The notes beneath the pieces are model-generated. The model was not told the DNA's origin. It made no database searches and was given only the letters and a program-made list of their open reading frames with translations. From NCBI GenBank assembly GCA_027002265.1, contig JAMOTM010000052.1, forward strand, positions 1 through 64,000: DNA of 64,000 bases, written 5' to 3'. The stretch comes from Aquificota bacterium. GTDB lineage: Bacteria; Aquificota; Aquificia; Desulfurobacteriales; DQVG01. Positions 1-48,178 of the stretch are shown one piece after another. The position numbers and the translations under genes were made by a program. Positions within the stretch are counted from its first letter, which is position 1, and every line of letters starts with the position of its first letter.

Positions 1-117
1 CCTGGTGGCCATAGCGGAGGGGAAACGCCCGTTCCCATTCCGAACACGGAAGCTAAGCCCTCCAGCGCCGATGGTACTGCTCGCGAGAGCGGGCGGGAGA
101 GTAGGTCGCTGCCAGGG
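1..117 (+). rRNA. rrf: 5S ribosomal RNA (5' end may lie at or just before the window start)
   Basis: Characteristic 5S sequence (gttcccattccgaacacggaagctaagccctccagcgccgatggtact...) with CCTGG/CCAGG terminal pairing, followed by a T tract. Confidence 0.95.
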
Positions 118-29624: not shown

Positions 29625-30734
29625 TTGGTAGATACACACGCTCATTTACACTTTCCTCAATTTGATAAAGATAGAGAGGAAATTTTAGAAAAAATAAAAG
29701 AAAAATTTGATTTTGTAGTAAATGTTGGAATTTCTATAAAGGATAGTATTAAGGCTTTAAGTCTAGCTTTAAAGCAAAACAATATATATTCTACATTTGG
29801 AGTTCATCCTCATGAAGCAAAAGACACTGATTTAGAGGAATTTGAAAAGGTATTTAAAAAAGTATATAAAGATTATGGAAGGAAAATAGTAGCTATTGGG
29901 GAAGCTGGGCTAGATTTTTATAGAAATCTGTCTCCAAAGGAAAAGCAATATGAAGTTTTTGAGTTTCAAATTGATCTTGCAAAAGAATATAACTTACCTC
30001 TTGTTATCCACTGTAGAAATGCAGAAAAAGAGCTTAGTGAAATTATAAAAAGGAAGGGCAAAGATATAAAAGGAATAATTCATTGCTTTAATGGAGACAA
30101 GACTCTTTTAAAAACAGCTTTAGATTTAGGATATTTTATTTCTTACTCGGGGATAGTAACTTATCCGAAAAATGAAGCTTTAAGAGAGACTGTAAAATAT
30201 GTTCCTATAGATCAAATTTTAGTAGAAACAGATAGCCCTTATCTTGCTCCTCAACCTGTAAGAGGAAAAAGAAATACACCTTTATATGTTGTTTATGTAA
30301 TTCAAACTTTAGCTGATATTTTAGATATAGATTTTTTAGAATTTAAAAGAATTGTAACTGTAAATGCAAAAAGAGCTTTTAATATTCCTTTGACTATAAA
30401 AGAACTTCGTTTTGACCCAACTATAAAAGTAAAAAATGTTTTGTATGTTTACTTAGATAATCCTTCTCACGAAAAAGACGTTAAATTTTTCTTTGGAAAA
30501 AATGTGTCAAAGCTTCCTTATGAAGATAAACTTTGTGCAGGACATATACTTTATTTAATAAAAAATCCTAAGCTCTATGATAAAATTGTTTTTGTAGTGG
30601 AAAATCCTTCTCAGGAAATAGAGAAGGTAATAAAAGAATGTAAAGAATATCTTGAAAAAAGAAATGTAAAAGTTGAGGTAGAAGATGGCAAACATAGTGA
30701 GATTCGCCGTTTCTTTGGACAGAAAATTATTTAA
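29625..30734 (+). CDS. TatD-family hydrolase with an extra ~110-aa C-terminal region
   Basis: MVDTHAHLHFPQFD; FGVHPHEAKD; GEAGLDFYRN; LVETDSPYLAPQPVRGKRNTP. Confidence 0.88.
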   Translation: MVDTHAHLHFPQFDKDREEILEKIKEKFDFVVNVGISIKDSIKALSLALKQNNIYSTFGVHPHEAKDTDLEEFEKVFKKVYKDYGRKIVAIGEAGLDFYRNLSPKEKQYEVFEFQIDLAKEYNLPLVIHCRNAEKELSEIIKRKGKDIKGIIHCFNGDKTLLKTALDLGYFISYSGIVTYPKNEALRETVKYVPIDQILVETDSPYLAPQPVRGKRNTPLYVVYVIQTLADILDIDFLEFKRIVTVNAKRAFNIPLTIKELRFDPTIKVKNVLYVYLDNPSHEKDVKFFFGKNVSKLPYEDKLCAGHILYLIKNPKLYDKIVFVVENPSQEIEKVIKECKEYLEKRNVKVEVEDGKHSEIRRFFGQKII

Positions 30735-31092
30735 TCGTTTTGAAGAATACTGGAAAGCGAGAGGTTATATATCTCGATCAGAAGCAATAAGAGATTTAAT
30801 TCGAGATGCTTTAGTAGAGGATATTCAGGAAAAAAATAAGGTAGTTTTTGGAACTATAACTTTAATATATGATCATCACGAAAAAGGTATAGGGGAAAAT
30901 TTAACAGATATTCAACACAAATATCTTCACGTAATAATATCCTCCATGCATGTTCATGTAGATGCTCACCACTGTCTTGAAGTTATAGCAGTTAAAGGAA
31001 AATATAACGAAATTAAAGAGCTTGCAGATAAGCTTATAACCTTAAAAGGAGTAAAACATGGAAAACTTGTTATAACGGCAATTACACCTTAA
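30685..31092 (+). CDS. nikR: nickel-responsive regulator
   Basis: MANIVRFAVSLDRKLFNRFE; HVHVDAHHCLEVIAVKG. Confidence 0.9.
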   Translation: MANIVRFAVSLDRKLFNRFEEYWKARGYISRSEAIRDLIRDALVEDIQEKNKVVFGTITLIYDHHEKGIGENLTDIQHKYLHVIISSMHVHVDAHHCLEVIAVKGKYNEIKELADKLITLKGVKHGKLVITAITP

Positions 31093-31103: not shown

Positions 31104-31622
31104 TTGAGATTAAAAATAAATTTGGAAACAAAAAAGAATTCTATTTTAGATTTTAACTATCAATATTACCTAGCATCTTCTTTATATAACATAATAAGAA
31201 ACGTAGATTTAGATTTTGCAAATAAACTTCACGAAAAAAGAACTTTTAAATTTTTTACATTTTCAAAGCTTTTTATAAAAAATAGAGAAATATTAGAAGA
31301 AGGCATAAAAATTTTAGATGGAAAAGTATATCTTTACCTTTCTTCCCCCTTAGAAGAATTTATTAGAAAAATAATATATGCCCTTTTCGAAAGTGGAGAA
31401 ATAAAGATAAAAGACTTAAGTTTTTATGTTCAACAAATATCTCTTTTAGAATCCCCAAAAATAGATAATGAAATTATCTTCAAAACACTTTCTCCCATAT
31501 GTCTTCGAACAAAAAAGGAAATAAATGGAGTATTAAAAGACTATGACCTTCTTCCTTCAGATAAAGACTTTAAAGAAAAACTTATAAAAAATTGGTATTT
31601 TAATCAAGATATGATAAAATAG
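31104..31622 (+). CDS. cas6: CRISPR-associated endoribonuclease Cas6, C-terminally truncated (TTG start)
   Basis: MRLKINLETKK...YQYYLASSLYNIIRNVDLDFANKLHEKRTFKFFTFSKLF; IIFKTLSPICLRTKKEINGVLKDYDLLP; ends before the glycine-rich loop. Confidence 0.7.
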   Translation: MRLKINLETKKNSILDFNYQYYLASSLYNIIRNVDLDFANKLHEKRTFKFFTFSKLFIKNREILEEGIKILDGKVYLYLSSPLEEFIRKIIYALFESGEIKIKDLSFYVQQISLLESPKIDNEIIFKTLSPICLRTKKEINGVLKDYDLLPSDKDFKEKLIKNWYFNQDMIK

Positions 31623-31628
31623 TATATT

Positions 31629-31955
31629 ATGGGAAGAAGAGGAAGACCGAGAAAATATACACGTAAATATAGGTGCCCTGAATGTGGTTCTAACTGGTGC
31701 GTAAAAAATGGAAAATCAAGAGATGGAAAACAAAGATATCTGTGCAAAGAGTGTGGCAGAAATTTCACTATAGGAGCAGAAAGATTAAAGAAACCAGAAT
31801 TTTTAAAAGAGCAAGCTTTAAAAATGATAGCTAAAGGCTCTTCGATTTCCGCTGTATCAAGAATTTTAAATATTTCTCCTTGGACAATTTCCACTTGGAT
31901 TCAAAGAGAGGGAAAACGTTTATTGAAAGAGCACGAAAAAAAGCAAAAACTATAG
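31629..31955 (+). CDS. InsA-like zinc-ribbon/HTH protein (IS1-type transposase N-terminal part; IS remnant or domesticated)
   Basis: RCPECGSNWCVKNGKSRDGKQRYLCKECGRNFT...SISAVSRILNISPWTISTWIQ; no catalytic InsB-like ORF follows. Confidence 0.75.
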   Translation: MGRRGRPRKYTRKYRCPECGSNWCVKNGKSRDGKQRYLCKECGRNFTIGAERLKKPEFLKEQALKMIAKGSSISAVSRILNISPWTISTWIQREGKRLLKEHEKKQKL

Positions 31956-31979
31956 TAAGAGTTTAAACATGTTTATATA

Positions 31980-32046
31980 TTCGTTAGCTATTAGTCTTTA
32001 TTATGGAGGCAAATCTAATGAATTTATCAGATTTTGATAAAATACC
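31980..32046 (+). repeat. 67-bp diverged repeat copy A (inverted relative to 48112-48178)
   Basis: 54/67 identical to the reverse complement of 48112-48178, ungapped. Confidence 0.75.
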
Positions 32047-32056
32047 ATTAATTTAC

Positions 32057-32084
32057 TTGACATAAAAAAATTACTGCATATAAT
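32057..32084 (+). promoter_or_regulatory. sigma70-like promoter TTGACA-N16-TATAAT upstream of the CRISPR repeats
   Basis: Perfect -35 and -10 hexamers, 16-bp spacer. Confidence 0.7.
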
Positions 32085-32154
32085 TAAATTTAAACAACCT
32101 TTGCGGCTATTTTTTATATTATGAATACGTTGGTTCTCAAGATTTTAGCGTGCT

Positions 32155-32250
32155 CTTTAAATAAGACCGTTACGGTATGGAAACTTAATAAAGTACCAAA
32201 GTTTTGTTTTGCAAATATAACTTTAAATAAGACCGTTACGGTATGAAAAT
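32155..32250 (+). CRISPR. Minimal CRISPR array: repeat CTTTAAATAAGACCGTTACGGTATGGAAAC (32155-32184), 36-nt spacer (32185-32220), degenerate terminal repeat (32221-32250, 28/30)
   Basis: 30-nt direct repeat with ACCG-TTA-CGGT dyad and 3' GAAAC, 36-bp unique spacer, 3'-degenerate last repeat; truncated cas6 about 0.5 kb upstream. Confidence 0.78.
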
Positions 32251-32280
32251 GAATTGTAAACAAAATTTTGGAACTATTCT

Positions 32281-32351
32281 GAAAAGTTGTGTAAAAAATT
32301 CAATCAAATGTTGAAAATCAAGAGCTTGTTACATCCTTTACACAATTTTTC
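32281..32351. mobile_element. 71-bp element bounded by 15-bp imperfect inverted repeats (GAAAAGTTGTGTAAA / TTTACACAATTTTTC); possible IS256-type end remnant
   Basis: Arms 32281-32295 and 32337-32351 match 14/15. Confidence 0.4.
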
Positions 32352-32388
32352 GGTATAGAACCGAAGATATATAAAGTGTTTATATTTT

Positions 32389-48111: not shown

Positions 48112-48178
48112 GGTATTTTAGCGAAATCTGATAAATTCGCTGGTTTTACTTTTATAACAAAGATTAATAGCTAATGAA
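48112..48178 (-). repeat. 67-bp diverged repeat copy B
   Basis: Reverse complement matches 31980-32046 at 54/67. Confidence 0.75.

What the first reader, a model, noticed from the sequence alone, without database searches (positions are those of the whole stretch)
31104..32250. Relic CRISPR locus: truncated Cas6, InsA-like gene and a promoter-driven one-spacer array
Seen: a 172-aa ORF with strong Cas6 N-terminal features (LDFANKLHEKRTFKFFTFS, IIFKTLSPICLRTKKEINGV) that stops at ...KLIKNWYFNQDMIK, before where Cas6 normally has its glycine-rich C-terminal loop. Six nt later an InsA-like zinc-ribbon/HTH gene begins. About 0.5 kb further is a two-repeat, one-spacer array. No other cas gene is in the window. 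Family knowledge: Cas6 is about 240 aa, with the catalytic His in the N-terminal half, apparently kept here (LHEKR). Inference: either a decaying locus left by IS-mediated deletion, or a retained minimal crRNA unit using effectors encoded elsewhere. The cas6 frame is intact and coupled to nikR, which is unusual for a dead gene.
Basis: partly seen in the sequence, partly recalled or inferred. Interest (0 to 1): 0.8.

Follow-up and report, generated by a model that had tools for sequence, protein, structure and literature searches.

The report
Broken CRISPR locus with mobile element
A jumping gene cut the last third off a CRISPR RNA-processing gene (cas6) in a heat-loving vent-type bacterium, and the other immunity genes searched for are missing, leaving only two CRISPR memory arrays; it is an ordinary but unusually readable fossil of a lost immune system.

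Summary
The ORF at 31104-31622 is Cas6 (PADLOC 3e-52, TIGR01877 2e-29), but only residues 1-163 are Cas6. Codons 164-172 are read from the left end of an IS1-family element. I map that element to 31594-32046 (453 bp, imperfect terminal inverted repeats, insA kept, insB absent). The IS right end abuts a CRISPR leader with a 12/12 consensus promoter, followed by repeat, 36-nt spacer and degenerate terminal repeat. The repeat is identical to one in a 19-repeat array elsewhere in this genome, and the leaders are homologous. A sister species has a 239-aa Cas6 with the glycine-rich loop, followed by type I-B (Tneap) cas8b1 and cas7, and uses nearly the same repeat. In the window's genome no second Cas6 was found, nor Cas1, type I-B Cas7 or Cas3; the Cas10-profile hits look like GGDEF proteins (best one read). 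Best reading: an IS-mediated deletion removed the cas6 3' end, probably with most of a type I-B operon, leaving a dead cas6 stub and orphan arrays. The 'retained minimal crRNA unit' branch is unlikely but not excluded, because the assembly is 95% complete. Such relics are a known kind; interest is modest.

The parts
30685..31092 (+). nikR (nickel-responsive regulator), upstream neighbour
   Evidence: Pfam NikR_C 1.8e-33 and RHH_1
31104..31593 (+). cas6 stub: Cas6 residues 1-163 of about 239 plus first base of codon 164; aligned equivalents of P. furiosus Cas6 Y31, H46, K52 (here Y28, H43, K49) present; C-terminal part with G-rich loop lost
   Evidence: PADLOC Cas6 3.2e-52, profile ends at residue 163; 61% identity to full-length Cas6 of L032, also ending at 163-164; 3pkm alignment
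31594..32046 (+). IS1-family element, 453 bp, internally deleted (no insB); about 35-bp imperfect terminal inverted repeats
   Evidence: Left end shared with C55:1-199 and C76:1-198 at 96%, with unrelated flanks; right-end fragments at C55:75466-75556 and C52:48112-48178; inverted-repeat alignment
31629..31955 (+). insA-like gene, 108 aa, zinc ribbon plus HTH, without the catalytic insB half
   Evidence: NCBIfam transpos_IS1 4.6e-21, profile positions 1-90 of 199
31594..31622 (+). IS-encoded tail of the cas6 ORF (WYFNQDMIK and stop)
   Evidence: IS left-end comparison; codon count
32047..32154 (+). CRISPR leader, upstream part cut at the IS junction
   Evidence: 88/112 aligned columns identical to the leader of the C43 array; local score 104 against shuffle maximum 36; homology starts at the first base after the IS
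32057..32084 (+). leader promoter TTGACA-16-TATAAT
   Evidence: 12/12 consensus match; both hexamers and the 16-nt spacing kept in the C43 leader
32155..32184 (+). CRISPR repeat CTTTAAATAAGACCGTTACGGTATGGAAAC
   Evidence: identical to 19 repeats on C43
32185..32220 (+). single 36-nt spacer; no protospacer found
32221..32250 (+). terminal repeat, degenerate at its 3' end (ATGAAAAT)
32269..32363 (.). MITE-like inverted repeat (about 40-bp arms, TTGTGTAAA/TTTACACAA) just after the array

Best explanation
This is the scar of a lost type I-B CRISPR-Cas locus. An IS1-family element inserted into cas6 after codon 163. A deletion starting at the IS right end (adjacent deletion by the transposase, or recombination between two IS copies) then removed the cas6 3' end and everything up to the CRISPR leader, probably including the cas8b-cas7-cas5-cas3 genes. 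What remains is a cas6 stub without its C-terminal part, an IS that has lost insB, a leader with an intact promoter and a one-spacer array. Shown: the stub, the IS ends, the junctions, the sister operon, and the absence from this assembly of the cas families searched. Inferred: the order and mechanism of the deletion, its content, and loss of activity. The arrays may still be transcribed but should not be cut into crRNAs.
For: Cas6 profiles end at residue 163. The IS left end sits exactly there and recurs at C55 and C76 with other flanks. The two IS ends are inverted repeats. The right end abuts a leader homologous to that of the C43 array. The sister species keeps a 239-aa Cas6 plus Cas8b1 and Cas7 of type I-B/Tneap and a near-identical repeat. 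In this genome: no other Cas6, no Cas1, no Cas7 with the sister fragment as positive control, only sub-cutoff helicase-like hits for Cas3. The best Cas10-profile hit reads as a CBS-GGDEF protein. The lost 76 residues are not in the window or in the other own-genome stretches compared.
Against: In the sister species cas6 follows glnE, but here glnE is followed by a transporter gene and the cas6 stub follows nikR, so the intact locus at this exact site was not seen. The stub frame has no stop or frameshift. The genome is 95.1% complete in 81 contigs, some broken at this IS, so a cas locus could be missing. Cas5, Cas8, Cas2 and Cas4 were not searched for separately.
Confidence: 0.85

Rival explanations
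1. Retained minimal crRNA unit: the truncated Cas6 still cuts repeats, or another Cas6 does so, and effectors elsewhere in the genome use the crRNAs.
For: Frame intact, equivalents of the catalytic residues present; leader promoter perfect; repeat conserved.
Against: The C-terminal part with the G-rich loop is missing. No second Cas6 and no Cas7, Cas3, Cas1 or credible Cas10 in the assembly.
Confidence: 0.05
2. The cas6-IS-leader join is an assembly chimera at a multicopy IS.
For: The IS is multicopy and other contigs end inside it.
Against: The window copy is 4% diverged from the other two in their shared 199 bases and lies inside a 68-kb contig, so an assembler should not have confused them.
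Confidence: 0.03
3. A simpler history: IS-mediated loss of only the cas6 3' end in a short cas6-plus-array locus that never had other cas genes beside it.
For: Only cas6, IS and array are visible; the cas6 position differs between the two species.
Against: In the sister species cas6 heads a cas operon; the 3' end of cas6 is absent beyond the IS and there is no target-site duplication, so a deletion of unknown size did occur.
Confidence: 0.07

Closest known systems
Cas6 endoribonuclease of type I-B (Tneap) systems; solved relatives 5yi6, 3qjj/3qjp, 3pkm
   Same: Residues 1-163 align end to end; Y/H/K equivalents of the P. furiosus triad present
   Different: Residues 164-239, with the GFGEKNSMGFG loop, are missing
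Cas6 operon of Desulfurobacteriaceae bacterium SZUA-1507 (DQVG01000110.1, L032)
   Same: 61% Cas6 identity, same start, near-identical CRISPR repeat in that genome
   Different: Intact 239-aa Cas6 followed by Cas8b1 and Cas7; placed after glnE rather than nikR
Isolated or orphan CRISPR arrays (Zhang and Ye 2017, PMC5294841; Aquificales examples in PMC4227106)
   Same: Arrays without companion cas genes, seen as remnants or as served by remote loci
   Different: Here the truncated cas6 and the IS that mark the break are still in place
IS1 family
   Same: InsA-like zinc ribbon/HTH protein, paired terminal inverted repeats
   Different: No insB; 453 bp; no target-site duplication at this copy

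Membership tests
Functional Cas6 | Significant Cas6 profile match | tested here: met
   3.2e-52 PADLOC, 2.4e-29 TIGR01877
Functional Cas6 | Complete C-terminal domain with glycine-rich loop | tested here: not met
   Profile stops at 162 of 235; the loop is present only in the sister protein
Functional Cas6 | Catalytic residues | tested here: met
   Y28, H43, K49 align with the P. furiosus Y31, H46, K52 triad (alignment; triad from general knowledge)
Functional Cas6 | Repeat cleavage | not testable with these tools
   needs biochemistry
CRISPR array | Identical repeats, unique spacers, leader | tested here: met
   Repeat shared with a 19-repeat array holding 16 distinct spacers, homologous leaders
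Type I-B CRISPR-Cas system in this genome | cas3, cas7, cas1 present | tested here: not met
   (95%-complete assembly)
Type I-B CRISPR-Cas system in this genome | cas5, cas8, cas2, cas4 present | not tested
IS1 family | InsA N-terminal half matching the IS1 transposase profile | tested here: met
   transpos_IS1 4.6e-21 over positions 1-90 of 199; 75.7 bits, below the whole-protein cut-off of 100, as expected with half missing
IS1 family | Terminal inverted repeats | tested here: met
IS1 family | insB/DDE half | tested here: not met
   only 91 bases lie between the insA stop and the right end

The most novel reading that the evidence does not exclude
The 163-residue Cas6 stub still binds or cuts the repeat, and the two promoter-led arrays supply small RNAs for a non-immune role, or for an effector missed here, in a genome otherwise without cas genes.
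Probability: 0.04. Interest if true: 0.75.

Novelty: new member of a known kind. Interest (0 to 1): 0.25.

Why it matters
It is a clean, base-level record of how a CRISPR-Cas system was lost in a thermophile: the IS end inside cas6, the IS end against the leader, and an intact sister operon for comparison. It also shows that arrays with intact promoters outlive their cas genes, so an array alone should not be counted as immunity.

Tried and rejected
Protospacer search: the window spacer gives no exact match in IMG/VR; the C43 array gives no match in phage records; spacers against the fetched stretches give only short partial matches. Repeat core in viral contigs: one match, inside a coding ORF of a GC-rich virus, judged chance. 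DevR PF01905 search missed even the sister fragment, so it was replaced by PDLC01455. Cas10 palm-profile hits: the best one reads as a CBS-GGDEF protein; the others were not read, but they match mainly the C-terminal part of the palm profile, as GGDEF domains do. The glnE neighbourhood holds no cas remnant. A structure prediction of the stub was not run, as it would not decide activity.

Full report
What is there. The ORF at 31104-31622 (172 aa, TTG start, 11 nt after the nikR stop) is Cas6: Pfam Cas6_I-A 8.5e-28 and Cas6_C 5.2e-9, TIGR01877 2.4e-29, PADLOC Cas6 3.2e-52 with the match ending at residue 163 and profile position 162 of 235. Against solved Cas6 structures the alignment also stops at 160-163. 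The C-terminal third is absent.

Why it stops. The sequence from 31594, GGTATTTTAATCAAGATATGATAAAATA, is the left end of a multicopy element. Contigs C55 and C76 begin with the same 198-199 bases at 96% identity to the window, preceded by unrelated flanks. A matching inverted right end, GGTATTTTATCAAAATCTGATAAA when reverse-complemented, ends at 32046. Fragments resembling this right end occur at C55:75466-75556 and at window 48112-48178. The element is 453 bp and carries a 108-aa InsA-like protein that matches the first half of the IS1 transposase profile, but no insB. Codon 164 of the ORF is one cas6 base plus the first two IS bases, so the tail WYFNQDMIK is not Cas6. No target-site duplication is visible: the flanks are TAAAAAATT on the left and ATTAATTTA on the right.

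The array. Immediately after the IS right end comes a leader homologous to that of a 19-repeat array on contig C43: 88 of 112 aligned columns identical, score 104 against a maximum of 36 in 2000 mononucleotide shuffles. The homology begins at the first base after the IS. It holds a perfect TTGACA-16-TATAAT promoter at 32057-32084. The 30-nt repeat is identical to the C43 repeats. The second repeat is degenerate at its 3' end (ATGAAAAT), as expected at the far end of an array, so this looks like a complete one-spacer array rather than a random pair of repeats. The C43 array has 18 spacers, one of them present three times, so 16 distinct spacers, and no cas gene is evident among the ORFs read in C43:25000-60000.

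Related loci. The only same-genus relative held, apparently the same contig as the public Desulfurobacteriaceae bacterium SZUA-1507 record (DQVG01000110.1, L032), encodes a 239-aa Cas6 61% identical over residues 1-163. It ends in GFGEKNSMGFG plus a few residues and is followed by Cas8b1/Cst1 (PADLOC Cas8b 1.9e-74) and a Cas7 start of type I-B/Tneap. That genome carries the repeat TTCAAATAAGACCGTTACGGTATTGAAAC, two mismatches from the one here. Over the 162 codons compared after the start, dN is about 0.28 and dS about 1.39, so selection acted on the gene for most of the divergence; this does not show that it acts now.

The rest of the genome. In the 1.39-Mb, 95.1%-complete assembly the stub is the only Cas6. 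There is no Cas1, no Cas7 while the same search finds the sister's 51-aa fragment, and no Cas3 above cut-off. Cas10-palm hits occur; the best one reads as a CBS-GGDEF protein and the remaining ones were not read individually. Cas5, Cas8, Cas2 and Cas4 were not searched for separately.

Interpretation. An IS inserted in cas6, and a deletion bounded by its right end brought the leader next to it. IS1-type elements are known to make adjacent deletions (general knowledge); recombination between two IS copies would leave the same scar. The deleted DNA must have included the cas6 3' end and probably the operon behind it. The nikR context differs from the glnE context of the sister species, so the intact ancestor of this very site has not been seen; this is the main gap. 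The stub lacks most of the C-terminal domain and its G-rich loop and is most likely inactive (inference). Transcripts of the arrays may be made but should remain uncut.

Novelty. Isolated arrays and isolated cas genes are well documented (PMC5294841), and CRISPR clusters without detected cas genes are reported in Aquificales (PMC4227106). This is a new, unusually legible member of a known kind.

Noticed in passing
window 32269-32363: Inverted repeat of about 40-bp arms (GGTTCTATACCGAAAAATTGTGTAAA...) directly after the array; looks like a small MITE or an IS256-like remnant (family from memory, not tested).
   Followed up: partly
window 48112-48178: Solo right-end fragment of the same IS1-like element (81% over 67 bp), just upstream of a gene that looks like purD.
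   Followed up: partly
L009 16590-17828 (C43:41589-42827): Orphan 19-repeat array; one 38-nt spacer occurs three times, pointing to internal duplication or recombination.
   Followed up: partly
window 29625-30734 and 30685-31092: tatD and nikR ORFs overlap by 50 nt in different frames.
   Followed up: no
window 1-117: 5S rRNA gene at the window start (Rfam).
   Followed up: no
L033 and L037 (sister genome G001): Sister-species arrays mostly carry the canonical ATTGAAAC repeat end, whereas all intact repeats here read ATGGAAAC; the change is uniform over both arrays of this genome, suggesting spacer acquisition continued after the repeat changed.
   Followed up: no
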